Origin: Myxococcota bacterium
GTDB lineage: Bacteria > Myxococcota_A > UBA796 > UBA2385
Direction of reading: 5' to 3'
Length of the DNA stretch: 64,000 nt
Assembly (NCBI GenBank): GCA_023150805.1
Contig: JAKLKF010000005.1
Span: 1 to 64,000, forward strand
How positions within the stretch are numbered: position 1 is the first letter of the stretch; every line of letters starts with the position of its first letter. The notes under the pieces were generated by a model. That model was not told the origin of the DNA and searched no databases. It was given only the letters and a program-made list of their open reading frames with translations. Made by a program: the position numbers and the translations under genes. Below, piece by piece: positions 2,237-25,206 of the stretch.

Positions 2237-2245
2237 CCTGAGGCG

Positions 2246-2683: not shown

Positions 2684-2715
2684 CGTACCGCGCCGCCCGC
2701 CGCGAGCAGCCCACC

Positions 2716-2728
2716 GGGAACTGTTCCC
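2716..2728. other. Short palindrome with repeated half-sites
   Basis: GGGAACTGTTCCC is a 6+1+6 palindrome. The half-site GGGAACAG recurs twice within the next 45 bp. It lies between the 3' end of the sulfatase gene and the 5' end of the GxxExxY gene. It could be an operator or a terminator remnant; there is no T-tract. Function unknown. Confidence 0.35.
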
Positions 2729-2822
2729 ACTCCGGGCGGGAACAGGCCCCCTCGGGCCGGGAACAGCCCCCTCCGACGCGCCGAGAACACCGTCCCCACC
2801 GCCCTCGCGCGCCACGCCGAGG

Positions 2823-6261: not shown

Positions 6262-8430
6262 CTATGGTCCTCCGCCACGGAGCAGATAGACGGCGCCTCC
6301 GTCCTCGGCTCCGCGGTCGGAACCGTATGATCCGACGAGAAGGTCGTCGAATCCGTCACCATTGGTGTCCCCGGGGGCGGCACGGTACAGGCCAGCGCCA
6401 TCACCTTCTCGTTCACCGATGAGGATTGCGTCCGCGTCGGCGACTGAAGTCACTCCCGAGTGTGGCGGATCGTAAAGCAGATAGACGCCACCGCGTTCCT
6501 CGTCTCCCATGTTGTGCCCGTATGATGCAAGCGCGAGGTCGAGTTGGGCATCACCATTGAGATCACCAGCGACCGCGCCGTCCAGCCACCCGTCTCCGAC
6601 CAGTCCGGTGAATCGTGCATCGGAAATGGATAGGAGGTTGTCCCCCATGGGAAGCGGTGACAATACGAGGTAGGCAGTTCCCGTGTTGTCTTCTGTGGTG
6701 TCGTGGTAACTGCCGATAATGACATCCGGGCGCCCATCTCCGTCCAGATCCTCGCCTGCGCCCAACGTGCCGATGCCGGCGTGTGCGCTCTCCGACTCTC
6801 CGCGGAGAACCAAGTCGGCGTCTTCCAGCGACAGCATCGAGGAGACCGGTCCGTTGACCAAGTATACCGCGCCCGCTTCTGCCCCTCCGGAGGAGTCGCT
6901 CATCCAAGCTCCCACAAGCAGATCTGCGATTCCGTCGCCATCGGTGTCTCCGGCAGCAGCAAGCGAGCTTGCTGCGTAGTCATACTCCTCGACTCCATAC
7001 AGCCATGCAAAGCAGTCATCCGAGGCCCCGTCAAGGCGCCAACCGGATGCCCAGACACACGCGCCGCCGCAGTAGGCGGGATCGCGATCGCCCAGTCGGG
7101 CGCTGATCACCACATCAGCGATCGTGTCCCCCGTCAGGTCTCCGACGGTGACCACACTTTCCCCCAGGTACTCGTACGTAGCCGACCCTGTGATCGAGGC
7201 TATTGCGTCGGTTTCGTCCAGTTCGCCCGTGATGGGTCCGGGGAATACCCAGGCGGTACCGCTTGTGTTGCCTGTTGTCTCTGTAGCTGCGCCGACAATC
7301 AGATCGGGCTCGCCATCTCCGTTCACATCCGCCCATGCGGAGTTGGTGGAGAGCTGTGTGTGGTTGCTGGGCGTGAGGATTGCGACGGCACTGGAGCTTT
7401 CCACGGAGCCGGCCACGGTTCCAGAATACCAACGCCAACCCGTCTGCGATCCGACTTGGATGTCTGGCAGTCCATCCCCGTCGATGTCAGGGGTGGCGAC
7501 GACGACTGCTTCAAGCGCGCGCGCTTCGACCCCTACGATGATCGCATCCGCATCCCCCAGGTCCACCTCCCCGCTCCACACGCACGCCCCCGGTCCCCCG
7601 TCGCAGTCCTGGTCTACGCCGTCGTCGCAGATCTCCTCCACCCCAGGGTTCACCCCGTCGTCGTCGTCATCGCAGTCGTCCCCGTTCTCTGCTGCACCAT
7701 CTGGCAGGTCACACGCGACAATCTCCACTGCCGCATCGCCGTACCCGTCGCCATCCACGTCGGCGTACCAGATCGACGCATCATCTGCATCCGCTTCGTC
7801 GACCTCGTCATCGCAGTCGTCGTCAATCTCGTTGCATTTCTCGGTCGCCCCAGGATTCACCGCGTCATCGTTGTCGTCGCAGTCACCGCCGTCGACCACG
7901 GCCCCATCTGGCAGTGGTGGGCAGGACACGGTCAGTGTCGCTGGATCTCCCCAGGTGTCCTCGTCGGCGTCCAGGTACCACGGGACGGCCTCCTCCGCCT
8001 CCGCTCCGTCCACGACATCGTCGCAGTCGTCGTCCGTCCCGTTGCAGACCTCCTCGGCGTCTGGGTGGATCGCCGCGTTTCCGTCTGCGCAGTCGCCGCC
8101 GATTTCGATGTAGCCGTCACCTGGAGGTTCGCACGCCTCGACCACGCCATCGTCGTCGCCGTAGCCGTCCTCGTCGATGTCCGGGTACCATCGGGGCATG
8201 GGCACCGTGTCCACATCGGTGTCGCCATCACAGTCGTCGTCGATTCCGTTGCAGATCTCGACCGCCCCCGGAAACACCGCGTCGTTCCCATCATCGCAGT
8301 CGGTGGTCCCGTACCCGTCGCCGTCCAGGTCCTGCCCGCCGTCCTGGACGCCCCACTGGTCGTCCCAGGCGGCGCGGTCCTGGGGACCGAGGAGGCATCC
8401 TGCCAGCATTCCGATGAGCAGCCCGTGCAT
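6262..8430 (-). CDS. MopE-type metal-binding-motif lipoprotein with FG-GAP repeats
   Basis: A 722-residue surface lipoprotein. The lipobox signal MHGLLIGMLAGC is followed by four to five copies of the MopE-like motif (DCDD...NPGA.E.CN.IDDDCD), then seven or so FG-GAP-like repeats (DINGDGxxDLxVG, for example GDTDGDGIADLLVGA). Both modules bind divalent cations, probably Ca2+, and build propellers or rigid stalks on the cell surface. The ATG shares its A with the stop of the caspase gene (TGATG at 8428-8432), so translation is coupled. The 3' half is visibly less GC-rich than its neighbours, suggesting different ancestry. The exact ligand is unknown. Confidence 0.85.
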   Translation of the reverse strand: MHGLLIGMLAGCLLGPQDRAAWDDQWGVQDGGQDLDGDGYGTTDCDDGNDAVFPGAVEICNGIDDDCDGDTDVDTVPMPRWYPDIDEDGYGDDDGVVEACEPPGDGYIEIGGDCADGNAAIHPDAEEVCNGTDDDCDDVVDGAEAEEAVPWYLDADEDTWGDPATLTVSCPPLPDGAVVDGGDCDDNDDAVNPGATEKCNEIDDDCDDEVDEADADDASIWYADVDGDGYGDAAVEIVACDLPDGAAENGDDCDDDDDGVNPGVEEICDDGVDQDCDGGPGACVWSGEVDLGDADAIIVGVEARALEAVVVATPDIDGDGLPDIQVGSQTGWRWYSGTVAGSVESSSAVAILTPSNHTQLSTNSAWADVNGDGEPDLIVGAATETTGNTSGTAWVFPGPITGELDETDAIASITGSATYEYLGESVVTVGDLTGDTIADVVISARLGDRDPAYCGGACVWASGWRLDGASDDCFAWLYGVEEYDYAASSLAAAGDTDGDGIADLLVGAWMSDSSGGAEAGAVYLVNGPVSSMLSLEDADLVLRGESESAHAGIGTLGAGEDLDGDGRPDVIIGSYHDTTEDNTGTAYLVLSPLPMGDNLLSISDARFTGLVGDGWLDGAVAGDLNGDAQLDLALASYGHNMGDEERGGVYLLYDPPHSGVTSVADADAILIGEREGDGAGLYRAAPGDTNGDGFDDLLVGSYGSDRGAEDGGAVYLLRGGGP

Positions 8431-9560
8431 CACCACTCCCACTGGACGACGGCGGCCAGGCCCAGGCCGGTGGCGGCGGCGACCAGGCCGTAGCCCGAGG
8501 CGCCGGTGACGCGGTTCATCTCGTAGAGGGCATCGGCCTTCGCAGCATCGGGCTCGTCCAGGTAGGCGCCGTGGCTCCAGGCGGTGTAGGCCAGCGCCCC
8601 TCCTGCCAGCAGGCCCGCGGCGCCGCCGGCGATGGCGAGGCCGCGGGAGCGGTGCCGGGGTGCCGCGACCTCGGCCTTGGGCAGGGGCGCGGGGCCCCGC
8701 AGCCGGGCCTCGGCGACGATGGCGGCGATGTCGGGCGCGGCCTCGGGCCGGTCGAGCTGGGCCAGGACGGTCTCGGCGCGGCCGGCCAGCTCGGGGGACT
8801 GGGTGCGGCCGTTGAGGTGGGTAGAGAGTACCTGCTCGGTGTAGGTCTGGACCTCGTGGGCGCGCACGGCGCCGTCGCCGTCGATGTCGGCCCAGCCGCG
8901 CAGGGCGCCGAGCACGAGGTAGCTGAAGGCGGGCTGCGACCCGCCCGGCAGGGCGCCGGCGACCTGGTCGCTGCGGGCGGCGAGCAGCAGGGTGCTCTCG
9001 GCGGCGACGCGGGCGGTGACGGGGACCAGGGGCTGCACGCCGGGCATCAGGGGGCCGGACTCGGTGCGGCCGCTGTAGCAGGCGTCGATGACGGCGATCA
9101 CGGGCGCGCCGCGGCCCCCGGCCAGGGCGAGCAGGCTCTGCTGGGAGACGCCGCGCTCGGCGATGCTGTCGGGGGTCTGGCGGACATCCGCGCCCAGGAG
9201 CAGGCCGTCGCCGGTGGCGGGGTCGGGGGCGCCGTGGCCGATGAAGATGACCCAGACCCGGCCGCCCGGCCCGGCCGCCTGGGCCGCGCGCTCGGCCTCC
9301 TTCAGGATCTCGGTGCGGGTGGCGTCGCCATCGACCAGGGGCTGGACGTGGCCCAGGCCCAGGCCCTCGCGCAGCCACGTCTGCCAGGCGCTGGCGTTGG
9401 CGCGGGCGCCGGGGATGTCCTGGACGCGGTCGTAGTCCTCGATGGCCACGATGAGGGCGGCGTCCTCGGCGAAGGGGCCGGCCTTGGGAAGGTCGGCGTC
9501 CAGCGAGGGCCAGGCGGGACCGGCCAGGGCGAGGGAGGAGAGCAGGAGCAAGGGGAGCAT
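8430..9560 (-). CDS. Caspase-like (C14) exported protein with C-terminal membrane segments
   Basis: A 376-residue protein: signal peptide (MLPLLLLSSLALAGPAWP), caspase domain about 30-250, then two C-terminal hydrophobic segments (GLAIAGGAAGLLAGGALAY and near the end). Catalytic dyad His109 (IFIGHGAP) and Cys161 (VIDACYSG). A DxDxDG loop (ADIDGDGAVRAHE) follows the catalytic Cys, as in the other caspases here, suggesting calcium control. Part of a minus-strand operon: DUF4384-like gene (110 bp upstream), caspase, MopE-type lipoprotein. The fragment at 5371-5432 is its closest relative in the window. Substrate unknown. Confidence 0.85.
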   Translation of the reverse strand: MLPLLLLSSLALAGPAWPSLDADLPKAGPFAEDAALIVAIEDYDRVQDIPGARANASAWQTWLREGLGLGHVQPLVDGDATRTEILKEAERAAQAAGPGGRVWVIFIGHGAPDPATGDGLLLGADVRQTPDSIAERGVSQQSLLALAGGRGAPVIAVIDACYSGRTESGPLMPGVQPLVPVTARVAAESTLLLAARSDQVAGALPGGSQPAFSYLVLGALRGWADIDGDGAVRAHEVQTYTEQVLSTHLNGRTQSPELAGRAETVLAQLDRPEAAPDIAAIVAEARLRGPAPLPKAEVAAPRHRSRGLAIAGGAAGLLAGGALAYTAWSHGAYLDEPDAAKADALYEMNRVTGASGYGLVAAATGLGLAAVVQWEW

Positions 9561-9670
9561 GGGCGGCTCAGTATTCCAGACGCTCGGGGGGCTGGTCTGC
9601 AGTGAGTGGTTATCTTGCTCTGCCCGAGCATTGGGGACAGGGTGGAGACACGAACCGAGGTCTGGATTCG

Positions 9671-10969
9671 CTACCCGCCGCATCGGGGTGGGCTGGAGTG
9701 GACCGGCAGCGTCCGCGGCCCGTCGGCGCAGGCGCCCTGCCCCGGTGGCAGGACCAGGAAGTTGGCCCCGACCGAGGCCGCCCCGGCGGGGATCCAGTCG
9801 TCCTGCCAGGTCCCCGGCGCCTTGCACCAGCCCTGCCAGGCCCGGGTCGCACCGAAGGTCCCGTCGGCGGGCACGGCGACGGCGACCAGGCGCTCCTCGC
9901 CGGTGGTGGGGTCGTACAGGACATCTTGGGGCCCCAGGGACAGCTCGCGCTCGACCAGGTCGCTCTGCCCCTCGGCGGGGAAGTACAGCCAGGCCTCGCC
10001 CTTGGCGTTGACCGCGTAGACCTGCACGCGCGCGGGCTGGCTGACCCGAACGACCGGCTCGACCACCTCGCCGGGGCAGTAGACGCCGACCCGCCCGTCC
10101 AGCATGGTCGGCAGGTCGACCTCCACCTGCAGGGCGCCGGCGCAGGAGCCCCAGGCCGTGGTGCCCAGCAGCGCGTCGGTGGCGCAGCGGCCAAGGTCGC
10201 CGGCGGCGACCCCCAGGAGCTGGGCCGGGAAGCCCAGGCTTCCCACCGGTCGCTCGGTCGCACAGTCGCCGTCCAGGATGGAGGCGCTGACCAGGACGGT
10301 GCCGCGCTGCTCGTCCAGGACCAGGCGGACGCGACGCAGGTCGGCGGGGGCCTTCGCGACGCCGGTCAGCAGGGTGGGCTTCTGCGGAAGCCGGCTGAAG
10401 GCGCCTCGCAGGCGGGCGGAGACGTCGGCGCCGACCGTGCCGGCGGCGCATCCCGACTCCCACACGGTGGTCATCAGGTAGATCGGGCCGCCCGACGCCG
10501 CCGCGGTGAGCTCGGCGCCCAGCGCCGCCATCTCCGCGTCCAGGGTCGCGCCCGCCTGCTCCAGCAGGCCCATGGTCGCGTCGGGCACGGCGGCGGTGGC
10601 GCAGGCCTCCCAGGTCTTCTTGTGGACCTGCCGCGTGTTGCCCCGGTAGGCGACGACGCTGGCCCGCACCTGGTCGCAGTAGGCGCTGGCGCCAGAGGCG
10701 ACCTCGGCGCAGCTCAGGCGCGCGAGCAGGCGCGCCTCGGCGTCGGCGTGGGCCAACGAGATGGCCTCGGCCGAGGTGGCGGCCTTCCCATAGCCGGGCT
10801 CGTAGGCGAAGAGGTTGAGGGCCTCGGCGCTCTGGAGCGACTCGCTGCCAGCGCCGGGCAGCAGGCCCTCGAAGCTGCAGGGGTCCTGCTCGTGCGGGTC
10901 CGCCTGTCGCGCGGCCTCCGCGGTGTTCGTCGCCAGCAGGAGTCCCATCAGTGTCCCGAGAGTGTGCAT
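9671..10969 (-). CDS. Secreted protein with DUF4384-like C-terminal domain
   Basis: A 432-residue exported protein with a signal-like N-terminus (MHTLGTLMGLLLATNTAEAA). The middle has several paired cysteines. The C-terminal third (VVEPVVRVSQPARVQVYAV, then GEAWLYFPAEGQSD) resembles DUF4384, a beta-sandwich domain that often accompanies caspase-like proteins and kinases. GGAGGA upstream of the ATG at 10969 supports the start. It heads the operon with the caspase and the MopE-type lipoprotein and diverges from the LPP20-like gene at 11057. The start regions are 88 bp apart and probably share a control region. No enzymatic motif is seen. Confidence 0.65.
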   Translation of the reverse strand: MHTLGTLMGLLLATNTAEAARQADPHEQDPCSFEGLLPGAGSESLQSAEALNLFAYEPGYGKAATSAEAISLAHADAEARLLARLSCAEVASGASAYCDQVRASVVAYRGNTRQVHKKTWEACATAAVPDATMGLLEQAGATLDAEMAALGAELTAAASGGPIYLMTTVWESGCAAGTVGADVSARLRGAFSRLPQKPTLLTGVAKAPADLRRVRLVLDEQRGTVLVSASILDGDCATERPVGSLGFPAQLLGVAAGDLGRCATDALLGTTAWGSCAGALQVEVDLPTMLDGRVGVYCPGEVVEPVVRVSQPARVQVYAVNAKGEAWLYFPAEGQSDLVERELSLGPQDVLYDPTTGEERLVAVAVPADGTFGATRAWQGWCKAPGTWQDDWIPAGAASVGANFLVLPPGQGACADGPRTLPVHSSPPRCGG

Positions 10970-12705: not shown

Positions 12706-13626
12706 ATGACACCCTCCCTGCTCCTGCGCTGCTCCGGCCTCCCCGACACGCGCCTGTCCGTCGGCGGCATGATCGGCCGGGCGCCGGGCTCCGCCCTGTG
12801 CGTCGACCAACCCACCATCAGCGAGGCCCACGCCATCGTGAGCCTTCGCGGCGGCCGGCTCGTGCTGCTGGGGCTGCGTGGTGCGCTGGAGGTGGACGGG
12901 GAGCGCGTGGCCGAGGTCGTGCTGCGGGAGGGGCAGGATCTGCGGCTGGGCGGGAGTGTCACTGTCCACGTCCTGTCCGTCGACCTGCCTCGCACCGTGC
13001 TGGCCGTGCAGATCGGCCGGGATCGCACGGTCCTCGACTCGGGGACCTGGTCGGTGCTGGCCGGGCCGCGGCTGGTGCGTGGGGACGTCGAGGGCGCCCT
13101 GGGGCGGCTGCGGCCCCGGGAGGGGGGCTGGCTGTGGGACCAGGGCGGGGATGTGCGCGCGGTGGGAGCGGGGGCCCAGGTGGACCTTGCCGAGGGCGTG
13201 CTGCGGTTCGTCGACCTGCCCCTGTCCGAGGCCTCCCGGCCCCGCACCGTCGGCGCCGACGCGCCCGTCTCGCTGCCGCTGCGGATCGAGGTCTGGCGGG
13301 AGCTGTCGCGGATCACCACGGCCGACGGCCGGCGGCTGGACCTGGTCGGCCACCCCGCGCGCATCCTGCGCGAGCTGGTGCTCAACGGCGAGCCCACCCA
13401 CTGGGAGGAGCTGGCCGGCACCATCTGGGAGGGCACCGAGGTCCACCTGCGCGACTCCTGGCGCCGCCAGCTCCAGGTCCTGCGCCGCAAGCTGCGCGCC
13501 GCCGGTGTGCGGGTGGACCTGGTGCAGTCCCTGGGCGACGGGCGGGCCATGCTCGACCTGCGGAGCGGGGACGTGCTGGAGGACCGGACTTTCGACGCCC
13601 GCGAGGGGCCGGGCGGAAGGGTGTAG
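12706..13626 (+). CDS. FHA-domain protein with C-terminal winged-helix
   Basis: A 306-residue cytosolic protein. Residues about 8-95 form an FHA domain: GR in MIGRAPGSALCVDQ, then TISEAHAIVSL with the conserved Ser and His that contact phosphothreonine. Residues about 215-300 (LVGHPARILRELVLNG, then WRRQLQVLRRKLRAAGVRVD) resemble an OmpR/SARP-type winged helix. Such proteins couple Ser/Thr kinase signalling to transcription. The caspase-FGE gene starts 27 bp downstream, and kinase genes lie at 22775-25206, so a kinase-to-FHA-to-caspase-locus control chain is plausible but not shown. Confidence 0.7.
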   Translation: MTPSLLLRCSGLPDTRLSVGGMIGRAPGSALCVDQPTISEAHAIVSLRGGRLVLLGLRGALEVDGERVAEVVLREGQDLRLGGSVTVHVLSVDLPRTVLAVQIGRDRTVLDSGTWSVLAGPRLVRGDVEGALGRLRPREGGWLWDQGGDVRAVGAGAQVDLAEGVLRFVDLPLSEASRPRTVGADAPVSLPLRIEVWRELSRITTADGRRLDLVGHPARILRELVLNGEPTHWEELAGTIWEGTEVHLRDSWRRQLQVLRRKLRAAGVRVDLVQSLGDGRAMLDLRSGDVLEDRTFDAREGPGGRV

Positions 13627-13652: not shown

Positions 13653-15707
13653 ATGCTCGCATTCCTGTCCCTGGCCCTGCTGTTGACCCTGCCCGTCCAC
13701 GCGGCGGAGTGGCCGGACCTGTCCGCACCTCCGCCCGCCAGCCGCGAGGGCGCGAAGGACGCCGCGCTGGTGGTGGGCATCGGCAGCTACGCGGCCGCCC
13801 AGCCGATCCCAGGGGCGCGGGACAACGCGCTGGCCTGGGTGAGCTGGCTCCAGGCGCGCGGCGTTCCGCTGGTCAAGCCGCTGCTGGACCGGCAGGCGGT
13901 GAAGGAGGAGCTGCTGGCAGCCGCACGGCAGGTGGCCAGCAAGGTGCAGCCCGGCGGCACGCTGTGGCTGGTCTATATCGGGCACGGCGCGCCCGCGCGG
14001 GAGGGCGACGACGGGCTGCTGGTGGGCTGGGACGCGCAGCAGACGGCCAGCAGCATCGAGGCGCGGGGCCTGTCGCAGGCGGCGCTGGTGGCGGAGCTCG
14101 AGGCCGTGCTGCCCACCGGCGCGCGGGCGGTGGTGGTGCTGGACGCGTGCTTCAGCGGCAAGACGGCGGCGGGCGACCTGGCCCCGGGGCTGGCGCCGAT
14201 GAAGCCCGTGTCTGCCCGGGTGGGCTCGTCGCGGGTGACGGTGCTGACCGCGGCGGCGGGCAACGAGTACGCGGGCCCGCTGTCGGACGGCAGCCGGCCG
14301 GCCTTCAGCTACCTGGCGCTGGGTGCCCTGCGGGGCTGGGGCGACGGTGACGGCGACGGCACGGTGCGGGCCAGCGAGGTGCACGCCTACGTGGAGCGGG
14401 CGCTCCTGCAGACGGTGACGGGCCGCAGCCAGACGCCCAGCCTGGACGGCCCGGACCTGGCGCTTGCGCGGGGGAGGGAGGCGGGGCCGGACCTGGTGGG
14501 GTTGGCGGTCCGGGGCACGGCGGCGCCGGTGACGGCGGGGGTGGCGACCATCGACCTGGGCGGGGGGGAGACGGACTTCGCTTCGCTGGCGGCCCGGGCC
14601 CAGGCGGCGGAGCAGGCGAAGCGCCAGGCCGAGGCGGCGGCGGCGGCGGCGGCGGCGGCGCTGGAGCGGGAGGAGCGGCGGCAGCTCGACGCGGCGGCGG
14701 CGACGGTTCGGTCGCAGGCCAGCCGGGACTTCGCGGCCTTGAAGGCGCTGGTGGAGGCGCCCTCGGAGGCGGGCAAGCCGGTGCTGGAGGCCTACGTCGC
14801 GCGGTACGGTTCGGCGAAGGTGACGGTGGGGGCGAGGTCGGAGGCGGTGGACGTGCCGGAGGTGGCGAAGGTGCGGGCGGCGCTGGCGGTGGTGGTGTCG
14901 CCGGCGGCGGTGGGAGCGCCGACGGGGGTAGTGGCGCCGGCGACCGGGCGGGCGGGGGAGCAGGTGGTGACGAAGTCGGGGATGAAGATGCGGGTGATTC
15001 CGGCGGGGACCTTCACAATGGGGTGCACGCCGGGGGCGGGGGAGTGCGACGACGATGAGAAGCCTGCGCACAGGGTGACGCTGATGCGGAGCTACCTGCT
15101 GGGCGAGACGGAGGTGACGCAGGGGCAGTGGTTGGCGGTGATGGGGAGCAATCCATCGCACTTCTCGTCCTGCGGGTCGGACTGCCCGGTGGAGAAGGTG
15201 TCCTGGCTGGACGCGGTGGCCTTCGCGAACGCGCTGTCGAAGAAGGAGGGTCTGGAGGCCTGCTACGTGGTCTCGGGAGAGACGGCGAGCTGGCCCAAGG
15301 GCGCCGCGTGCACGGGCTACCGGCTGCCGACCGAGGCGGAGTGGGAGTACGCGGCGCGGGCGGGGAAGGACAGCCGGTATTCGGGAGGGTCGGAACTGGG
15401 TGCCGTGGGGTGGTTCTCCGACAACCCGTATGGCAAGACCCACCGCGTGGCGCAGAAACAGGCCAACGCCTGGGGTCTGTTCGACATGAGCGGCAACGTC
15501 TGCGAGTGGAGCTGGGACTGGCACGGTGCCTACTCGGCCAGCGCATTGACCGACCCGGTGGGCGCATCCGACGGCCGCTTCCGGGTCTACCGGGGCGGGA
15601 GCTGGTTCGACTCCGCTCGCTACGCGCGCCTCGCGTATCGCGGCTGGGTCTACCCCGGCTACCGCTACAACTACCTCGGCCTGCGCCTGGCAAGGTCGAT
15701 CCCTTGA
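13653..15707 (+). CDS. Caspase / coiled-coil / FGE-lectin protein with DGR-type variable tail (copy 1)
   Basis: A 684-residue exported protein. Signal peptide 1-18; caspase domain 30-250 with His111 (YIGHGAP) and Cys166 (LDACFSG); DxDxDG loop 231-242 (GDGDGDGTVRASE); Ala/Glu-rich coiled coil 310-365; FGE-sulfatase (formylglycine-generating-enzyme-like, C-type-lectin fold) domain 443-682 (MRVIPAGTFTMGC, GYRLPTEAEWEYAARAG, YRGGSW). The C-terminal codons form a variable region (15576-15689). In known DGR targets this fold displays diversified ligand-binding residues, so the FGE domain here is probably a sensor rather than a sulfatase activator. GGGGAG precedes the ATG. Paralogues follow at 16021 and 18185. 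Confidence 0.85.
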   Translation: MLAFLSLALLLTLPVHAAEWPDLSAPPPASREGAKDAALVVGIGSYAAAQPIPGARDNALAWVSWLQARGVPLVKPLLDRQAVKEELLAAARQVASKVQPGGTLWLVYIGHGAPAREGDDGLLVGWDAQQTASSIEARGLSQAALVAELEAVLPTGARAVVVLDACFSGKTAAGDLAPGLAPMKPVSARVGSSRVTVLTAAAGNEYAGPLSDGSRPAFSYLALGALRGWGDGDGDGTVRASEVHAYVERALLQTVTGRSQTPSLDGPDLALARGREAGPDLVGLAVRGTAAPVTAGVATIDLGGGETDFASLAARAQAAEQAKRQAEAAAAAAAAALEREERRQLDAAAATVRSQASRDFAALKALVEAPSEAGKPVLEAYVARYGSAKVTVGARSEAVDVPEVAKVRAALAVVVSPAAVGAPTGVVAPATGRAGEQVVTKSGMKMRVIPAGTFTMGCTPGAGECDDDEKPAHRVTLMRSYLLGETEVTQGQWLAVMGSNPSHFSSCGSDCPVEKVSWLDAVAFANALSKKEGLEACYVVSGETASWPKGAACTGYRLPTEAEWEYAARAGKDSRYSGGSELGAVGWFSDNPYGKTHRVAQKQANAWGLFDMSGNVCEWSWDWHGAYSASALTDPVGASDGRFRVYRGGSWFDSARYARLAYRGWVYPGYRYNYLGLRLARSIP
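15576..15689 (+). other. Putative DGR variable region (VR), copy 1
   Basis: 114 bp, 38 codons, aligned without gaps to 17941-18054. Thirteen codons differ (starting at 15576, 15579, 15588, 15606, 15609, 15621, 15642, 15645, 15648, 15651, 15666, 15669 and 15672). Twelve are NNC in both copies and one is NGG. All 18 differences are in codon positions 1-2; the other 25 codons are identical at every base. That pattern is expected when AAC codons of a template repeat are adenine-mutagenised during retrohoming. Confidence 0.8.
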
Positions 15708-16020
15708 CCCTTGAACCCCTGATCCCTTGTCCGCGTTCGCATTCCCCGTCCGCCCGGAGCGTCGCCGGGTCGGACCAGGCCGGGCAGCGCCCCCGCCGCG
15801 AAGCGGAGACCGGGGGCAGCGACCGGACGGGCCGGCTCGGCGACGCGCAGGGCGGCCACCATCCGTGCGAGCGGCGATCCAAAGCGAGCGGAGCGAGCGC
15901 CCGCCTCTTCCTCCCACTGCGAAGCGGGGGGAGGTGCCCCCGCAGGGGGCGGAGGGGGGCAAGAAAGCACAATCATGCCCGCATCCCCACCGCCCCCTCC
16001 TCCCTCCCTCGGACCGCCCC
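15708..16020. other. Intergenic region downstream of VR copy 1, with hairpins
   Basis: No convincing gene. It contains a nested hairpin at 15790-15816 (CCCCCG/CGGGGG outer and CCGC/GCGG inner stem, GAA loop) about 100 bp after the variable region, and a second hairpin at 15937-15951 (GCCCCCGCAGGGGGC). They could be terminators, or structures assisting retrohoming as described downstream of some DGR variable regions. There is no clear ribosome-binding site before the next gene. Confidence 0.4.
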
Positions 16021-18072
16021 GTGCCGCTCCTCCTCTCCCTCTCCCTGCTCCTGACCTCCCCGGCGCGCGCCGCGGACTGGCCGGACCTGTCCACCCCGCC
16101 GCCAGCCCCCGGCAGCGCCGCCAACGACGCCGCCCTGGTCGTCGGCATCGAGGACTACGCCTTCGCCCAGGACATCCCCGGGGCTCGGGACAACGCGCTC
16201 TCCTGGGTGCGATGGCTCCAGGCGCGCAAGGTGACCCTGGTGAAGCCCCTGCTCGACCAGCAGGCCACGCGGGAGGAGCTCCTCAGCTCCGCGGCCCAGG
16301 TCGCGGCGAAGGTGAAGCCCGGAGGCACTCTCTGGCTCGTGTACATCGGCCACGGCGCACCGTCGCGCACGGAAGACGACGGGCTGCTGGTGGGTGTGGA
16401 CGCGCAACAGACGTCCAGCAGCCTGCAGGCGCGGGGCCTCTCCCAGCGGGAGCTGGTGGCGGCCATCGAGGGCGCCCTGCCCTCCGGCGCGCAGGCGGTG
16501 CTGGTGCTGGACGCCTGCTTCAGCGGCAAGACGGCCAGTGGTGACCTGGCGCCCGGCCTGGCACCCCTGAATCCCGTCTCGGCGCGGCTCTCCTCGGGCC
16601 GCGTGACCGCGCTGACGGCAGCCCGAAGCGACGAGTACGCCGGCCCCCTCCCCGACGGCCGGCGCCCCGCCTTCAGCTACCTGGTGCTCGGCGCCCTGCG
16701 CGGCTGGGGGGACGGTGACGGCGACGGTCGGGTGAGCGCCCAGGAGGCCGTGTCCTACGCGGGAGACGCCATGCTCCAGACCGTGACCGGTCGCAGCCAG
16801 ACACCGACGCTTTCGGGCGACGGCAGCCTGGTCCTGGGGAGCGGAGCCGAGGTGGGGCCGGACCTGGTGGAGCTGTCGGTGGCGGCGCGGACGGCGCGCG
16901 CGGATGGGGTCACGGCGACAATCAACTTGGGGTCCGGGAGCATGGACTTCGCAGAGCTGACGGCCCGAGCACAGGCAGCGGAGCTGCTGAAGCGTCAGGC
17001 CGAGGCAGCGGCTGAAGCGGCTGCGGCGGCATTGGCGGCCGAGGAGCGGCGTCGGCTCGACGCGGCGGCAGCGGCAGCGAGGGCCCAGGCCAGCCGAGAC
17101 TTCGCCGCGTTGGAGGCGTTGGTGGAGTCGCCGACCCAGTCGGGAAAGCCGGTGCTGGAGGCCTACCTGGCGAAATACGGGGCCGCGACCGTCACGGTGG
17201 GGCCGCGGTCAGAGCCGGTGACGGTGCCGGAGGTGGCGCGGGTGCGGGCGGCGTTGGCGGTGGTGGCGGCGCCAGCGACAGCGGGGACGCCGGTCCAGAC
17301 GGCGCTGACCGGTCGGGCCGGCGAGCAACTGGTCACGGAGTCGGGGATGAAGATGCGGGTGATTCCGGCGGGGACGTTCACGATGGGCTGTACGCCCGGG
17401 GCGGGGGAGTGCGAGGACGACGAGAAGCCGGCGCACAAGGTGACGCTGACGCGGAGCTTCCTGCTGGGTGAGACCGAGGTGACGCAGGGGCAGTGGATGG
17501 CGGTGATGGGGAGCAACCCGTCGAGGTTCTCGTCCTGCGGGTCGGACTGCCCGGTGGAGAACGTGTCCTGGCTGGACGCGGTGGCCTTCGCGAACGCGCT
17601 GTCGAAGAAGGAGGGGCTGGAGGCCTGCTACGCGGTGTCGGGCGAGGCGGTGAGCTGGCGAAAGGGCGCTGCCTGCACGGGCTACCGGCTGCCGACGGAG
17701 GCGGAGTGGGAGTACGCGGCGCGAGCGGGAAGGGACAGCCTGTACGCCGGCGGCGACGAGTTGGGGGCGGTCGGGTGGTTCACGGACAACGCGGGTGGCA
17801 CGACGCACCGCGTGGCGCAGAAGGGGGCCAACGACTGGGGCCTGTTCGACGTGACGGGCAACGTCTGGGAGTGGAACTGGGACAGGTACGGAGCCTACCC
17901 GACCGGCACAGTGAGTGACCCGGCGGGCGCGTCAGACGGCCTCGGCCGGGTCGCCCGGGGCGGGAGCTGGCTCAACTCCGCTCGCTCCGCGCGCCTCGCG
18001 TATCGCGACGGGGACCTCCCCGGCTACCGCATCAGCGTCCTCGGCCTGCGCCTGGCCAGGTCCCTTCCGTAA
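16021..18072 (+). CDS. Caspase / coiled-coil / FGE-lectin protein with DGR-type variable tail (copy 2)
   Basis: A 683-residue paralogue of the preceding gene with the same domain order: signal peptide 1-18, caspase with His111 (IGHGAP) and Cys166 (LDACFSG), DxDxDG loop (GDGDGDGRVSAQE), coiled coil, FGE-type domain and variable tail. The GTG at 16021 is chosen because the protein then starts VPLLLSLSLLLTSPARA, matching the signal peptide of copy 3; the in-frame extension upstream is Pro/Arg-rich and unnatural. No good Shine-Dalgarno site precedes it. Outside the tail the two copies differ at many synonymous sites, so the duplication is not recent. Confidence 0.85.
   Translation: MPLLLSLSLLLTSPARAADWPDLSTPPPAPGSAANDAALVVGIEDYAFAQDIPGARDNALSWVRWLQARKVTLVKPLLDQQATREELLSSAAQVAAKVKPGGTLWLVYIGHGAPSRTEDDGLLVGVDAQQTSSSLQARGLSQRELVAAIEGALPSGAQAVLVLDACFSGKTASGDLAPGLAPLNPVSARLSSGRVTALTAARSDEYAGPLPDGRRPAFSYLVLGALRGWGDGDGDGRVSAQEAVSYAGDAMLQTVTGRSQTPTLSGDGSLVLGSGAEVGPDLVELSVAARTARADGVTATINLGSGSMDFAELTARAQAAELLKRQAEAAAEAAAAALAAEERRRLDAAAAAARAQASRDFAALEALVESPTQSGKPVLEAYLAKYGAATVTVGPRSEPVTVPEVARVRAALAVVAAPATAGTPVQTALTGRAGEQLVTESGMKMRVIPAGTFTMGCTPGAGECEDDEKPAHKVTLTRSFLLGETEVTQGQWMAVMGSNPSRFSSCGSDCPVENVSWLDAVAFANALSKKEGLEACYAVSGEAVSWRKGAACTGYRLPTEAEWEYAARAGRDSLYAGGDELGAVGWFTDNAGGTTHRVAQKGANDWGLFDVTGNVWEWNWDRYGAYPTGTVSDPAGASDGLGRVARGGSWLNSARSARLAYRDGDLPGYRISVLGLRLARSLP
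17941..18054 (+). other. Putative DGR variable region (VR), copy 2
   Basis: Partner of 15576-15689. Encodes the tail from LGRVARGGSW to LGLRL. Variable residues L,G,A,L,N,S,D,G,D,L,I,S,V replace R,F,Y,F,D,Y,G,W,V,Y,Y,N,Y of copy 1. The invariant framework codons are base-identical between copies, while the preceding 114 bp contain at least four purely synonymous differences and the codons after the VR also drift. Confidence 0.8.
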
Positions 18073-18184: not shown

Positions 18185-20290
18185 ATGGACCACCCCGTGC
18201 CCCTCCTCCTCTCCCTCGCTCTGCTCCTGACCTCCCCGGCTTTCGCCTCGGACTGGCCGGACCTGTCCACCCCGCCTGCCGCCACCCGTGACGGCGCCAA
18301 CGACGCGGCCCTGGTGGTCGGCATCCAGGACTACGCCAAGGTGGACGATGTCCTGGGCGCGCGGGAGAACGCGAACGACTGGTACGCCTGGCTGGTGAAG
18401 ACCCGCGGGGTGCCGCTGGCTCGCGTGCACGTGCTGCGCGACAGTCTCGCCGTCGACCACAAGATCGAGAGCGAGCTGGCGCTGGCGGTCTCCGAGGTGC
18501 AGCCGGGAGGGACGCTGTGGGTGGTGTTCATCGGGCACGGCGCGCCCTCGAAGGACGGGCGGGACGGGCTGCTGGTGGGGGCGGACGCGGACCGGAGCGC
18601 GGATGGCATCTACCAGCGCAGCGTGGCGCGCAGCGAGGTGCTGGCTGCAATCGAGCAGGGACGTCAAGGGCAGGCGGTGGTGGTGCTGGACACCTGCTTC
18701 TCGGGCCAGGGTCAAGGCGGCGGCGCCCTGGTGGAAGGCTTGCAGCCGCTGGTGCCGACCCGTGAGCGGGTGTCGAGCGGGCGGGTGACCCTGCTCACGG
18801 GGGCTGGCTCGGGCGAGTTCGCCGGGCGGCTGCCGGGCACCACACGGCCCGCCTTCAGCTACCTGGCGCTGGGCGCGCTGCGCGGCTGGGGCGACAGCGA
18901 TGGGGACGGCGTGGTGAGCGCATCCGAGGTGGCGGAGTACACGCTCGGGGCGCTGCGGGCGACGGTGCACGACCGCAGCCAGACGCCCAGCCTGGACGGC
19001 CCGGACCTGGCGCTTGCGCGGGGGAGGGAGCGGGGGCCGGACCTGGTGGCGCTGGCGGTGAAGGGAGCCGCGGCGCCGGTGACGACGGGGGTGGCGACCA
19101 TCGACCTGGGCGGTGGCAGCACGGACTTCGCGGCGCTCGCGGCGGAGGCCCAGGCGGCGGAGGCGGCGAAGCGCCAGGCCGAGGGGGCGGCGGCAGCGGC
19201 AGCGGCTGCGCTGGCGAAAGAGGAGCGGCGACAGCTCGACGCGGCGGCGGCGACGGTGCGGTCGCAGGCGAGCCGGGACTTCGCTGCGCTGAAGGCGCTG
19301 GTGGAGGCGCCGACGGCGTCGGGTAAGCCGGTGCTGGAGGCGTATGTCGCGCGGTATGGCGCGGCGAAGGTGACGGTGGGAGCGAAGACGGAGGCGGTGG
19401 ACGTGCCGGAGGTGGCGAAGGTGCGGGCGGCGCTGGCGGTGGTGGCGGCGCCGGCGGCGGTGGTGGCGGCGCCGACGGGGGTGGTGGCGCCGACGGGGGT
19501 GGTGGCGCCGACGACCGTGACGTCCACCGCGCGGGCGGGGGAGCAGGTGGTGACGAAGTCGGGGATGAAGATGCGGGTGATCCCGGCCGGGACGTTCACG
19601 ATGGGGTGCACGCCGGGGGCTTGGGTGTGCGACGCTGATGAGAAGCCCGCGCACGAGGTGACGCTGACGCGGAGCTACCTGCTGGCGGAGACGGAGGTGA
19701 CGCAGGGGCAGTGGTCGGCTGTGATGGGGAGCAACCCTTCGAAGTTCTCGTCCTGCGGGTCGGACTGCCCGGTGGAACGCGTGTCCTGGCTGGACGCGGT
19801 AGCCTTCGCGAACGCACTGTCAACGAAGGAGGGGCTGGATGCCTGCTATGTGATCTCGGGCGAGACGGTGGGCTGGCCGAAAGGTGCGGCGTGCACCGGC
19901 TACCGGTTGCCGACCGAGGCGGAGTGGGAGTACGCGGCGCGTGCGGGAGAAGCCAGCTCGCACGCAGATGGTGCGGAGATGGGTTCGGCGAGGTGGATGG
20001 CCGACTACGCAGGTGGGAAGACCCACCGCGTCGGGCAGGAGCAGGCCAACCCCTGGGGGTTGGCCGACATGACCGGCAACGTGTGGGAGTGGACATGGGA
20101 TTGGTTTGGACCGTACGGGGCGGGTGCGACCACGGACCCTTTGGGTGCTACAACCGGTCTGAACCGGGTCCGGCGGGGCGGGGGCTGGACTCTCACCGTT
20201 GACGGCGCGCGCTTTGCGGCCCGCGCGAGGAGTGACCCCGGCTCCAAGGTCAACGACATCGGCCTCCGCCTCGCCCGCACACTCCCCTGA
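18185..20290 (+). CDS. Caspase / coiled-coil / FGE-lectin protein (copy 3, diverged tail)
   Basis: A 701-residue exported paralogue. Signal peptide about 1-22 (VPLLLSLALLLTSPAFAS); caspase His118 (FIGHGAPS) and Cys171 (LDTCFSG, with Thr for the usual Ala); DSDGDG loop (GDSDGDGVVSASE); coiled coil; a linker with repeated VVAAPTGVVAPT; then the FGE-type domain. The C-terminal 38 codons (20159-20272) align without gaps to the variable regions of copies 1 and 2, but framework codons differ at synonymous and non-synonymous sites, so it has not recently been rewritten from the same template. It converges on the RAYT gene with a 7-bp gap. Confidence 0.85.
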   Translation: MDHPVPLLLSLALLLTSPAFASDWPDLSTPPAATRDGANDAALVVGIQDYAKVDDVLGARENANDWYAWLVKTRGVPLARVHVLRDSLAVDHKIESELALAVSEVQPGGTLWVVFIGHGAPSKDGRDGLLVGADADRSADGIYQRSVARSEVLAAIEQGRQGQAVVVLDTCFSGQGQGGGALVEGLQPLVPTRERVSSGRVTLLTGAGSGEFAGRLPGTTRPAFSYLALGALRGWGDSDGDGVVSASEVAEYTLGALRATVHDRSQTPSLDGPDLALARGRERGPDLVALAVKGAAAPVTTGVATIDLGGGSTDFAALAAEAQAAEAAKRQAEGAAAAAAAALAKEERRQLDAAAATVRSQASRDFAALKALVEAPTASGKPVLEAYVARYGAAKVTVGAKTEAVDVPEVAKVRAALAVVAAPAAVVAAPTGVVAPTGVVAPTTVTSTARAGEQVVTKSGMKMRVIPAGTFTMGCTPGAWVCDADEKPAHEVTLTRSYLLAETEVTQGQWSAVMGSNPSKFSSCGSDCPVERVSWLDAVAFANALSTKEGLDACYVISGETVGWPKGAACTGYRLPTEAEWEYAARAGEASSHADGAEMGSARWMADYAGGKTHRVGQEQANPWGLADMTGNVWEWTWDWFGPYGAGATTDPLGATTGLNRVRRGGGWTLTVDGARFAARARSDPGSKVNDIGLRLARTLP
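20159..20272 (+). other. Homologue of the variable region, not under the same signature
   Basis: Encodes LNRVRRGGGWTLTV...IGLRL. Same length and position as the two VRs, and it keeps the GG-W and GLRL framework, but codon choice in framework positions differs (for example GGC for AGC, and CTC for CTG in the final LRL). It may be an inactive or separately templated variable tail. Confidence 0.5.
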
Positions 20291-21319: not shown

Positions 21320-22726
21320 CTACCACCCCACCCACAAGGACTGCGCGGCCTGCACCACCTCCCAGGGCGCGCCGTTGGCCTGCAGCCACGCGATGTCCGC
21401 GGTCGTGTAGCAGGTCTGGTTGATCACCATCTGCTGGGCGACCTGGTCGGGCCTCATGCCGCTGTTCACCATCTGTGCGATCAACAGCAGCACGGCATCA
21501 CCCTGGGCAAGGCAGGTCGCCCCAGCCCCCCCGGTCGGCGCCGGTGCCCCGGTATCCACGGTGTCCGCCCCACCCTGCTGGAACCAGTCCCGGGCCTGCA
21601 GCGCGTACACCAACTCTGGCACCTCGACGGCACGGGTCTGGCCACCCGCGCTCACGGTGGCGCCCTGGTAGCTCTGGATGAATCGTTCGACCCGCTCCAC
21701 CACGTCGGTCGCACCGGCGTCGGACGCCGCCTCGATCGCCCGCCACTCCTGCGTGGCCCGCCCCCGCAGCGCCAGCTCGGCCGCGTCCAGGCCCCCCGCC
21801 GCCGGCACCGCCCCCGCCGCCGCCGCCACTGGCACCACCGCCGCCGGCGCCGCCACCACCGGCACCGCCGGCCGGCCGGCGAGCGCGATGGCCCCGAGGT
21901 CGGGCCCCTTCGCCGCCCCCTTCGCCAGCACCAGCCCCCCGTCGGCGGCCTCCAGGCTGGGCGTCTGTGTACGGTCGTTCACGGTGCGGAAGAGCGCGTC
22001 GCTGGCGTAGCGCACGGCCTCGTCGGCGGTGATGGCGCCGTTGCCGTCGGCGTCTCCCCAGCCCCACAGGGCACCGAGCACCAGGTAGCTGAAGGCCGGT
22101 CGGTCCTTCCCTGGAAGCGCCCCGGCGTATTGGTCGCTGGCGGCGGCGGTGAGCACGGTGGCCGTCCCGCTCGCCCGCGCGCTCACGGGCTTGAGCGGCT
22201 GCAGGCCGGGGACCAGGGCGCCGGCCGCGGTCTTGCCGCTGAAGCAGGCGTCGAGCACCACGACGGTCTGCGCCTGGGGCCCGGCGAGCAGCCCCAGCAG
22301 CTCGTCGCGCCGCACGCTGCGGGCCTCGATGCTGGTGGCCTTCTGCTGGGCGTCCACGCCGACGAGCAGGCCGTCGTCGGCCGAGGCGGTGGGTGCGCCG
22401 TGTCCGACGAAGACGACCCAGGTGGTGGCCCCGGGCTGCGCGCGGGCGGCCAGCGCCTTGGCGGCCTCGACGATGCCCTCGCGCGTGGCGTCAGTGTCGG
22501 TCAGGATCTTGATGGTCTGAACGCCGCGGCTGTCGTGCAGCCAGGTGTACCAGTCCCGCGCGTTGTCCCGCGCCCCGGGCACGTCGGGGGCGAAGGCGTA
22601 GTCCTCGATCCCGATGATGAGCGCCACGTCCTTTCCGCCGTCCCGGCTGCCGCGGGGCGGCGTGGACAGGTCCGGCCAGTCGGCCGCGGCAGCGACCCCG
22701 AGCAGGAGGGCGAGGGCGAGGAGCAT
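21320..22726 (-). CDS. Caspase-like exported protein with alternative C-terminal tail
   Basis: A 468-residue protein: signal peptide (MLLALALLLGVAAAADWP), caspase domain with His109 (FVGHGAPT) and Cys161 (LDACFSG), and a DADGNG loop (GDADGNGAITADE). The hinge after the caspase resembles that of the FGE-bearing paralogues (ATVSAGGQTRAVEVPELV). Instead of an FGE domain it ends with a short Cys-containing module of about 60 residues (CLAQGDAVLLLIAQMV...TCYTTADIAWLQANGAPWEV), probably a helical bundle with one disulfide. The ATG at 22726 has GGAGGT close upstream and yields a proper signal peptide, so it is preferred over the TTG at 22753. The kinase gene 48 bp upstream is on the same strand. Confidence 0.83.
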   Translation of the reverse strand: MLLALALLLGVAAAADWPDLSTPPRGSRDGGKDVALIIGIEDYAFAPDVPGARDNARDWYTWLHDSRGVQTIKILTDTDATREGIVEAAKALAARAQPGATTWVVFVGHGAPTASADDGLLVGVDAQQKATSIEARSVRRDELLGLLAGPQAQTVVVLDACFSGKTAAGALVPGLQPLKPVSARASGTATVLTAAASDQYAGALPGKDRPAFSYLVLGALWGWGDADGNGAITADEAVRYASDALFRTVNDRTQTPSLEAADGGLVLAKGAAKGPDLGAIALAGRPAVPVVAAPAAVVPVAAAAGAVPAAGGLDAAELALRGRATQEWRAIEAASDAGATDVVERVERFIQSYQGATVSAGGQTRAVEVPELVYALQARDWFQQGGADTVDTGAPAPTGGAGATCLAQGDAVLLLIAQMVNSGMRPDQVAQQMVINQTCYTTADIAWLQANGAPWEVVQAAQSLWVGW

Positions 22727-22774
22727 GGGACCTCCGAGGGGAACGTATCGCAATCCAGGCCCCCGCTCGGGGAC

Positions 22775-23710
22775 CTACTCCTCGTCCACCGGCAGGGTCC
22801 GCAGCGCTACGCCGCGCGCCGGCGCCTCGGCGGGCGCGACCGGAACCGCCGCCGCCCGCCGCGGAGCCGGCAACTCCTCGTCGAAGCCCAGGCCCCGGGC
22901 CACCTCGCCACAGTCCTTCGGACGATGGGCCGGGTCGGGCTCCAGGCATGCCTCGACGATCCGGACCACCTGGGAGGGCAGGTCCGGCTCCAGGCCCTGC
23001 AGGGGTGCGAAGCGCCGGGCCATGCTGTTGTTGAGCACCTGGACCCACTGCTCACCGGGGAAGGCAGGAGAGCTGGAGAGCACCTCGTAGGCGATGCAGC
23101 CGATGGACCACAGGTCAGCGCGGTGGTCGACGCGCTTGGCGTCGAGGCTCTGCTCGGGCGCCATGTAGCCGATGGTGCCCAGCGCCGTGTTGGTCCGGGT
23201 GAGGTGGCCGACCAGCTCGTCGGGCGCGAGCAGCTTGGCCAGGCCGAAGTCCGCCACCTTGGGGCGCAAGTCGGTCCCCCACTGGACGAGGAGCACGTTG
23301 GCGGGCTTCAGGTCTCTGTGCACGATGCCCTCGGCGTGGGCGGCGGCGACGCCACGCAGGATTCCCGCCAGCAGGTCCAGACGCTCGTCCACGGTGCTGG
23401 TCAGACCCTCGCCCCGCAGCCAGGTGAACAGATCCTCGCCCGTGGCCAGCTCGAGCAGCATCGCCGGATTCCCCCGGACCGACAGGAAGCCATGGCACCG
23501 CACGACGTTGCGGTGCTGCAAGCGGGTCAGGATGCCAGCCTCGGCCTGGAAGCGGCGGCTGTTGACCAGGGTGGGGTCGATGAGGACCTTGAGCGCGAAG
23601 TGGGCCCCGCTGCCCACGTCGCGCACGGCGTAGACCTCGCCGGCTGCGCCGCCGCCCAGGACCTGCTGCACCTCGTACGCGGCGACCCGGTCGCCGATGG
23701 AGAGGATCAC
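22775..23710 (-). CDS. Hanks-type Ser/Thr protein kinase (soluble)
   Basis: A 311-residue kinase with glycine loop LGGGAAGEVY, catalytic Lys41 (ALKVL), HRDLKPAN (Asp133), DFG (Asp154), TIGYMAPEQ activation segment and the late DLWSIGC motif. All catalytic residues are present. The about 40-residue Pro/Ala-rich tail has no membrane segment. The GTG start overlaps the stop of the upstream kinase gene by 4 bp (GTGA), so the two kinases are co-translated. It lies directly upstream of the caspase gene at 21320-22726, making that pathway a candidate target. Confidence 0.9.
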   Translation of the reverse strand: MILSIGDRVAAYEVQQVLGGGAAGEVYAVRDVGSGAHFALKVLIDPTLVNSRRFQAEAGILTRLQHRNVVRCHGFLSVRGNPAMLLELATGEDLFTWLRGEGLTSTVDERLDLLAGILRGVAAAHAEGIVHRDLKPANVLLVQWGTDLRPKVADFGLAKLLAPDELVGHLTRTNTALGTIGYMAPEQSLDAKRVDHRADLWSIGCIAYEVLSSSPAFPGEQWVQVLNNSMARRFAPLQGLEPDLPSQVVRIVEACLEPDPAHRPKDCGEVARGLGFDEELPAPRRAAAVPVAPAEAPARGVALRTLPVDEE

Positions 23711-25206
23711 CGCGACTCCGAGCTGCAGGTGACGACGTAGTTGGCCCGGGTGCAGGAGACGGTGACGGTGGCGCCGGCGGCCACGACGACCTGGGCCTGG
23801 GATGTGCCGTCGACGAGCACCCGGTAGGTGCCCGCCGGCACGGGGCCGGGGGGGAAGCGCGCCTTGCCGCGAGCGGCCTCGAGCTGGACGCCGGCGAGGT
23901 CGCCGGCGAGGGTCCAGGTGCCCCTGGCGGCCGCCGCGGCGTCGGTGGCGGCGTCTTGCAGCGCGGCGGCGGGGGTGGGGTCGGCCGGAGCCGGAGCGGT
24001 GGGGCCGGGCTTCGCAGTCCCCGGGCCGGGCGAGGGGGTGTGCGGGATGACCGGCGGCGGTGCGGCCGGGTCCGGCGCGGGGGCCGTGCTCCCTGCGGAA
24101 GGGGCGGGGCTCGACGGGGGCGGCGCCTCGCCTGGGTCAGCGACCTGCACCTGCTCGATGGGGGTCTGCTCCTCCACCGCCACGGGCGCCTGCTCGCCCT
24201 GCCGCAGCCCCCACCACAGCCCGCTGCCCGCCACCAGCACCCCCGCGCCCAGGGCGAGCAGGGCCGTGGGACCCCGACCCGAGCCCTTCGCGGCGGAAAG
24301 GGGGGCCACTGGGGGCGCTTCGGAAGGGCCGCGCACGGCCGGGCTCGGCGTTGAGAGGCGCTGCGGTGGGGGCGGCCGCGGCGTCACCGCTCGGGGCTCT
24401 GCCAGCAATGCTGCGACATCCTCGCAGCGCTGCAGGCGCTTCTCGCGGTCCACCGTCAGGCAGCCGCGGATGGCCGCAACCACTCCCGGCGGCAGCCCCG
24501 CGGGAGGCTCGGGGTAGTCCGCCCGGTCGATCTTGTTGAAGATCTGCAGGATGTCCTCGCCGTCGAAGGCCAGGCGGTCGGACACCACCAGGTAGAGCAG
24601 GCTGCCGAGCGCCCAGATGTCGGCGCGTTGATCGACGTCACTGGCGTCGCGCACCTGCTCGGGCGCCATGAAGGCGGGCGTGCCCATGGGGTGGCCGGCC
24701 CGGGTCTTGTGGGCCGCGGCGCGCTCGGGGTCGAGGACCTTGGCGATGCCGAAGTCGGTCACCTTGGGGTGGGGGCCGTCGGCGGTGCGCTGGACCAGGA
24801 TGTTGTGCGGCGACAGGTCCCGGTGCACCACGCCCAGGTCGTGGGCGGCGCGCACGCCGCGAAGGACGGCTCGGAACACCGCGAGGCGCTCCGAGATGGG
24901 TGGCCGGTCCTGCTCGAGCCACTCGACCAGGGACGGGCCGTCCACGTACTCCATGACCAGCCCCGGGCTGCCGGCGACATCGATGACGTCGGTGACGGCG
25001 ACGACATTGGGGTGGCGCAGCGCCGCCTGGACCCGCGCCTCTTGCATCAGGCGCTCTCGCACCTTCGGGTTTCCCGAGCGCAACACCTTGAGCGCGTGCA
25101 GGCCGTCGGTGGCGGTGTGACGGACCCGGAAGACGTCGGCCATGCCGCCGCTGCCGAGTGGCGCCTCGATGGTGTAGCGGTCGACGATGTCGCCTGGATT
25201 CGGCAT
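23707..25206 (-). CDS. Membrane Ser/Thr protein kinase with PEGA-like extracytoplasmic tail
   Basis: A 499-residue protein. Kinase domain about 10-270: LGSGGMADVF, Lys40, HRDLSPHN (Asp130; the usual Lys of HRDLKPxN is Ser, a variant common in myxobacterial kinases), DFG (Asp151), PAFMAPEQ. One transmembrane helix at about 313-335 is followed by a Pro-rich linker and a C-terminal small beta domain (PAGTYRVLVDGTSQAQVVV) resembling PEGA, likely outside the membrane. First gene of the kinase-kinase-caspase run. It may relay an envelope signal; the ligand is unknown. Confidence 0.9.
   Translation of the reverse strand: MPNPGDIVDRYTIEAPLGSGGMADVFRVRHTATDGLHALKVLRSGNPKVRERLMQEARVQAALRHPNVVAVTDVIDVAGSPGLVMEYVDGPSLVEWLEQDRPPISERLAVFRAVLRGVRAAHDLGVVHRDLSPHNILVQRTADGPHPKVTDFGIAKVLDPERAAAHKTRAGHPMGTPAFMAPEQVRDASDVDQRADIWALGSLLYLVVSDRLAFDGEDILQIFNKIDRADYPEPPAGLPPGVVAAIRGCLTVDREKRLQRCEDVAALLAEPRAVTPRPPPPQRLSTPSPAVRGPSEAPPVAPLSAAKGSGRGPTALLALGAGVLVAGSGLWWGLRQGEQAPVAVEEQTPIEQVQVADPGEAPPPSSPAPSAGSTAPAPDPAAPPPVIPHTPSPGPGTAKPGPTAPAPADPTPAAALQDAATDAAAAARGTWTLAGDLAGVQLEAARGKARFPPGPVPAGTYRVLVDGTSQAQVVVAAGATVTVSCTRANYVVTCSSESR

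What the first reader, a model, noticed from the sequence alone, without database searches (positions are those of the whole stretch)
15576..18054. Paired DGR-type variable regions in tandem caspase-FGE genes
The 114-bp tails of the genes at 13653 and 16021 align without gaps. Eighteen nucleotide differences hit 13 codons, all at positions 1 or 2. Twelve of these codons end in C in both copies (NNC), one is NGG. The remaining 25 codons are identical at all 75 bases. The 114 bp just before show ordinary drift, including at least four purely synonymous changes, and codons after the VR also drift. This mirrors adenine-specific mutagenesis of AAC codons during mutagenic retrohoming. FGE/C-lectin domains are known DGR targets, but here they sit on caspases with signal peptides.
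Basis: partly seen in the sequence, partly recalled or inferred. Interest (0 to 1): 0.93.

Follow-up and report, generated by a model that had tools for sequence, protein, structure and literature searches.

The report
Hypervariable tails on secreted-looking bacterial caspases
Two neighbouring bacterial genes for caspase-like proteins that look exported end in patches bearing the marks of a known retroelement that rewrites chosen codons, although the retroelement itself was not found in the available genome assembly.

Summary
In detail: the 114-bp tails at 15576-15689 and 17941-18054 differ at 18 bases in 13 codons, never at a third position. Stretches of the same two genes that change as much carry 6-23 third-position differences. 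Best reading: two diversity-generating retroelement (DGR) variable regions. A same-family genome has a DGR cassette (RT, Avd, HRDC protein, template) whose target is a 57%-identical caspase-FGE. In that template and two others, 12 of the 13 variable codons have adenine at position 1 or 2, and the odd NGG codon is AGG in one. In one relative, two variable regions of one template differ from each other the same way (17 bases, 13 codons, third positions 0). The window's own assembly (91% complete, 398 contigs) shows no template, DGR RT or Avd, so present activity is unproven. New here: a CTTGA direct-repeat element at the end of the first tail. All 13 exact matches in 63 genomes of the order adjoin FGE tails; 0 of 22 viral matches do. 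It lies where the prototype DGR needs a hairpin. The second tail lacks it, as do 3 of 7 template-proven variable regions. Caspase-type and remote DGR targets are already published.

The parts
13653..15707 (+). g1: signal-peptide-like N-terminus, caspase domain (aa 37-252), helical linker, FGE domain (aa 445-681)
   Evidence: PF03781 E 4.8e-45; NF047832 caspase E 7.2e-15, 55 bits, below its 140-bit cut-off; His111/Cys166 conserved in 4 of 4 aligned proteins; signal peptide by eye
15576..15689 (+). VR1, variable region of g1
15693..15717 (+). CTTGA direct-repeat element at the end of VR1, overlapping the stop codon (15705-15707); putative retrohoming target element
16021..18072 (+). g2: same architecture as g1 (GTG start assumed)
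   Evidence: PF03781 E 2.5e-45; NF047832 E 1.6e-15, below cut-off; 74% identical to g1
17941..18054 (+). VR2, variable region of g2; not followed by the element (best match 4 mismatches)
18185..20290 (+). g3: third tandem caspase-FGE paralogue, tail without the pattern and without the element

Best explanation
The tails of g1 and g2 are DGR variable regions in a TvpA-like FGE/C-type-lectin domain at the C-terminus of caspase-like proteins that look exported. A DGR reverse transcriptase with Avd copies a template RNA, misreads its adenines (mostly AAC codons, one probably AGG), and the cDNA replaces the 3' end of the gene. The framework stays identical while about 13 residues change. Both copies carry the framework of one template, set recently compared with the divergence of the rest of the genes. 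The machinery is not in the assembly: it is more likely unassembled, unbinned or acting in trans, less likely lost. The CTTGA element after VR1 may mark where retrohoming starts, in the place where the BPP-1 target has a hairpin. Function, inferred only: exported sensors whose variable lectin domain binds changing foreign or cell-surface ligands, coupled to a caspase. Shown: the sequence pattern, homologous templates and cassettes, the element's association with FGE gene ends. Inferred: activity in this organism, the element's role, export, proteolysis, ligand.
For: Zero third-position differences against 6-23 in equally changed windows. Identical framework tract 15570-15691, close to the TR/VR limits in G008 and G016. 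Of the 18 variable bases, 16, 16 and 15 fall on template A in G008, G016 and G002, where 29, 30 and 28 of 114 bases are A (p 6e-10, 1e-9, 1e-8). 12 of 13 variable codons have A at position 1 or 2 in each of the three templates; TGG/GGG aligns with AGG in G008. G008 cassette: caspase-FGE target 57% identical to g1, HRDC, bAvd, RT, template, 14 differences at A and 0 elsewhere. Two G016 VRs: 15 and 17 differences to the template at A, 0 elsewhere; between them 11/6/0 by position in 13 codons. The closest solved sequence is the DGR variable protein TvpA, 2y3c, E 1.4e-45, next best 1.8e-16.
Against: No template, DGR RT or Avd in the own assembly. Codon 2 has no A at positions 1/2 in any of the three templates, and 2-3 of the 18 variable bases are not A there. 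g2 lacks the element. No reads or strains were available to show present diversification.
Confidence: 0.9

Rival explanations
1. Frozen variable regions: a DGR wrote these tails, but RT and template have since been lost, leaving fossils.
For: Nothing found in the assembly. Of 13 genomes of the order with an element-bearing FGE tail, only 4 have a strong match to the DGR RT profile, and 5 of the other 9 have no RVT_1 match. RT genes look broken in G002 and beside the second template of G008.
Against: The framework has not drifted at 96 of 96 shared bases while the flanks have, so writing was recent. Assemblies of 84-95% completeness in hundreds of contigs can miss mobile or repeat-rich loci.
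Confidence: 0.3
2. Only g1 is a DGR target; VR2 was copied from an older VR1 by gene conversion, after which VR1 went on changing.
For: Only g1 has the CTTGA element; it is the only match in the genome at up to 1 mismatch.
Against: The shared tract ends close to the VR limits of relatives, which gene conversion would not require. Three of seven template-proven VRs lack the element, so g2's lack is weak evidence. It still needs a DGR.
Confidence: 0.2
3. No DGR: ordinary positive selection on surface loops of the FGE domain after gene conversion, with C-ending codons due to G+C bias.
For: FGE tails without the element also use more C-ending codons at these columns than elsewhere (0.70 against 0.53, 26 tails); these columns vary in FGE proteins generally.
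Against: Does not explain zero third-position change, the coincidence with template adenines in three relatives, or the TGG/GGG to AGG match.
Confidence: 0.03

Closest known systems
[quoted passage not shown]
   Same: Caspase-type N-terminus, C-type-lectin VR at the 3' end, targets away from the RT; a few predicted exported
   Different: Other phylum; most predicted cytosolic; there a template was found in the genome, here not
Thiohalocapsa PB-PSB1 DGRs (PMC10907252, passages)
   Same: FGE-type C-lectin VR in putative conflict proteins, incomplete or remote target loci, one likely exported target, one caspase-like CHAT target
   Different: NTPase/MoxR/TIR settings with nearby partners; diversification seen in natural populations
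Metacaspase-FGE fusions (PMC3501461, passages)
   Same: Same domain pair, in 33 sequences of a survey of 671
   Different: The term retroelement does not occur in the text held
BPP-1 DGR target site (PMC3240598, passages)
   Same: An element directly downstream of the VR; there shown to be needed for retrohoming
   Different: There a hairpin/cruciform; here a direct-repeat sequence whose region folds no better than shuffles
T. denticola TvpA (2y3c)
   Same: FGE/C-lectin domain aligned through the variable segment
   Different: No caspase domain aligned; only the FGE part of g1 was compared

Membership tests
DGR target gene (variable region) | Differences between copies confined to codon positions 1/2 with a constant framework | tested here: met
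DGR target gene (variable region) | Template in the same genome with A at the variable positions | tested here: not met
   none in an incomplete assembly; templates of relatives fit at 12 of 13 codons
DGR target gene (variable region) | C-type-lectin/FGE fold, VR at the 3' end | tested here: met
   by sequence only; AF2 model too poor
DGR (complete retroelement) | DGR-type RT and Avd in the genome | tested here: not met
   incomplete assembly; so not filed as a complete DGR
DGR target site | Hairpin/cruciform downstream of the VR | tested here: not met
   z 0.08 (g1), 0.70 (g2), -0.83 (G008 target) as DNA
Active DGR | Diversification within the population | not testable with these tools
   no reads or strains
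Caspase (clan CD peptidase) | His/Cys dyad in a caspase domain | tested here: met
   (below the curated cut-off; no Pfam C14 match)
Exported protein | Signal peptide | tested here: inconclusive
   hydrophobic N-termini by eye; no predictor run

The most novel reading that the evidence does not exclude
A bacterial order keeps libraries of remote, often orphan DGR targets, including exported caspases, many of them tagged by a CTTGA direct-repeat sequence in place of the known hairpin. A trans-acting, possibly mobile DGR could recognise the tag and rewrite many sensor genes, so that any gene acquiring tag and VR joins the repertoire.
Probability: 0.25. Interest if true: 0.75.

Novelty: new variant of a known kind. 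Interest (0 to 1): 0.52.

Why it matters
DGRs are among the few known systems that rewrite chosen codons. A variable surface on a caspase that looks exported suggests a sensor-effector that meets its ligand outside the cytoplasm (exported DGR targets as such are common: PMC8144416, passages). The CTTGA element offers a simple sequence tag for finding remote targets with no RT nearby, a class which that large survey says it could not detect, and makes target recognition in this group directly testable.

Tried and rejected
The only RT matched in the own genome (C222) was considered as the missing DGR RT and rejected: QGAPLSP rather than a (L/I/V)GxxxSQ-type motif, a stronger group II-type match than the DGR RTs give (154 against 112 and 107 bits, all below cut-off), only 54 bits to the DGR RT profile, and no template-like repeat in the 18 kb around it. 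g3 and a caspase-FGE on C81 were considered as further targets and rejected: framework bases differ and no element follows. The C335 hit to the G002 template is an ordinary FGE tail.

A viral template was sought with a framework pattern in viral contigs: 0 matches. The element gave 22 exact viral matches, none beside an FGE tail. Of the 80 genome-contig loci (the best 80 of a capped search), 0 had the exact element, one had a DGR-motif RT (L197), and my phmmer screen for g1's caspase domain at 1e-3 found none, although the tblastn spans of L123 and L166 reach into the caspase part. The AF2 model of g1 was too poor to use (mean pLDDT 47.9), so no fold search was made. The G016 template count was misaligned by one codon and is replaced. 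An earlier count said that all 13 variable codons have A in the G008 template; recounted it is 12 of 13 (a column outside the VR had been counted).

Full report
OBSERVATION. The two 114-bp tails (15576-15689, 17941-18054) differ at 18 bases in 13 codons, 8/10/0 by codon position; 25 codons are identical. The gene pair is otherwise old: 38-codon blocks are 62-95% identical, and 47 of 213 FGE codons before the tail differ at the third position. Of 602 sliding 38-codon windows that end before the tail, none has fewer than 3 third-position differences, and windows as rich in position-1/2 changes have 6-23. The shared framework runs from 15570 to 15691. Neighbour g3 diverges ordinarily there.

THE GENES. 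g1, g2 and g3 have N-termini that look like signal peptides (by eye), a caspase domain (NF047832, E 7e-15, 1.6e-15, 5e-17, all below the curated cut-off; no Pfam caspase match), conserved His111 and Cys166, and a C-terminal FGE domain (E about 1e-45). The nearest solved sequence to the FGE part of g1 is T. denticola TvpA (2y3c, E 1.4e-45; next 1.8e-16), aligned through the variable segment.

RELATIVES WITH THE MACHINERY. RVT_1 matched in 29 of 58 genomes searched (own included). In G008 (same family), G016 (same order) and G002 (same genus) an RT with GLPIGNLxSQ lies on the same contig as a template and an FGE gene with a variable region. In G008 the order is caspase-FGE target, HRDC protein, bAvd, RT, template; the target is 57% identical to g1 over residues 4-684. 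TR/VR differences in 114 nt, at A and elsewhere: G008 14/0; G016 15/0 and 17/0 for VRs on two contigs; G002 19/6. The G002 RT is interrupted. G044 and G020 also have TR/VR pairs, in FGE proteins that are not caspases as far as I can see by eye, and G008 has a second pair.

LINK TO THE WINDOW. Aligned on RGGSW, the 18 variable window bases fall on template A at 16, 16 and 15 positions in G008, G016 and G002 (A in 29, 30, 28 of 114; p 6e-10, 1e-9, 1e-8). In each template 12 of the 13 variable codons have A at position 1 or 2; codon 2 does not. The odd TGG/GGG codon aligns with AGG in G008. As control, the two G016 VRs differ from each other at 17 bases in 13 codons, 11/6/0. Eight within-genome pairs of tails from six genomes, window included (only tails with 240 nt held upstream), have third-position differences of 0 (three pairs), 1 (two), 2 (two) and 5 (G003, where one tail is not directly followed by the element); the 80 codons upstream have 21-42, except 3 in G016.

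WHAT IS MISSING. The own assembly (7.77 Mb, 398 contigs, 90.7% complete) has no third copy of the framework: the best other blastn hit of VR1 is a 45-base match in the C81 caspase-FGE, and a wildcard pattern with up to 3 mismatches finds only the two tails. No DGR RT and no bAvd were found. The contig is 113,024 bases long, so no DGR was found near the genes. This is the main gap.

THE CTTGA ELEMENT. At the 3' limit of the VR, overlapping the stop codon of g1, lies AGGTCGATCCCTTGACCCTTGAACC (15693-15717). A like element follows the VRs of G008, G016 (both), G044 and two VR-like tails of G032, but not the templates printed, g2, g3 or C81. AGGNCNNNNNCTTGANNCTTGANCC has 32 matches at 0-1 mismatch in 63 genomes of the order; the reversed pattern has 7. 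Of the 30 loci held, 13 of 13 exact matches adjoin FGE tails: 12 directly at the gene end, the 13th (L243) after a partial duplicate of the tail. Of 17 one-mismatch loci 7 do so by my pattern, one more (L239) by eye, and one (L236) is masked. Of 51 tails collected (two are non-FGE frames), 19 have it at 0-1 mismatch, none at 2, one at 3, g2 at 4, the rest at 5 or more; part of this set was collected with the element itself. Against generality: of seven variable regions with a template found, four have it (G008 C161, two in G016, G044) and three do not (G002, G020, G008 C113). C-ending codons at the variable columns are commoner with the element (0.87 of 19 tails against 0.70 of 26; p=0.002, sequences not independent). 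In viral contigs 0 of 22 exact matches adjoin an FGE tail. BPP-1 needs a hairpin/cruciform here (PMC3240598, passages); this region folds no better than shuffles. Of 13 genomes with an element-bearing FGE tail, 4 (G016, G008, G044, G050) have a DGR RT profile match above 400 bits; G036 and G057 have only matches of 85-89 bits; 7 have none at 1e-15. So tails without a detected RT are common in this order.

READING. Mutagenic retrohoming most likely wrote both tails from one template, recently on the scale of the genes' divergence; whether it still can is open. In print: caspase-type DGR targets and remote targets in cyanobacteria (PMC7517822, passages), FGE-type DGR conflict proteins (PMC7159879, passages; PMC10907252, passages), metacaspase-FGE fusions (PMC3501461, passages). 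PMC10053308 and PMC6642488 (passage search only) gave nothing on caspases. I saw no mention of a direct-repeat target element in the passages read or the listings, which is not an exhaustive search. Hence a new variant of a known kind.

Noticed in passing
window 8433-10463 (-), 21323-22753 (-), 12706-13626 (+), 23710-25206 (-): Two further caspase-domain genes (Pfam C14), an FHA-domain gene and a protein kinase gene flank the tandem caspase-FGE genes.
   Followed up: no
L069 (G002:C313) 1251-4653: A DGR RT gene in the same genus is interrupted by a 715-aa ORF on the other strand that looks like a serine recombinase (by eye).
   Followed up: partly
L218 (G008:C113), reverse complement 6006-7424: A second template/variable pair in G008 (9 differences at A, 0 elsewhere in 120 nt), with what looks like an RT remnant nearby.
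   Followed up: partly
L105 (G032:C147) and L225 (G032:C86): Kinase-FGE and other FGE genes with variable-region-like tails and the CTTGA element in a genome with no DGR RT profile match at 1e-15.
   Followed up: partly
L022 (G000:C222) 7851-8753 and L063 (G001:C272): The only RT found in the own genome is group II-like; a similar one in G001 sits on a contig whose ORFs look like CRISPR genes (by eye).
   Followed up: no
L088 (G001:C84) 1-1818: A caspase-FGE homologue in the same genus is cut by the contig end at query residue 619, about 23 codons before the VR, as might happen if the VR broke the assembly; could be chance.
   Followed up: no
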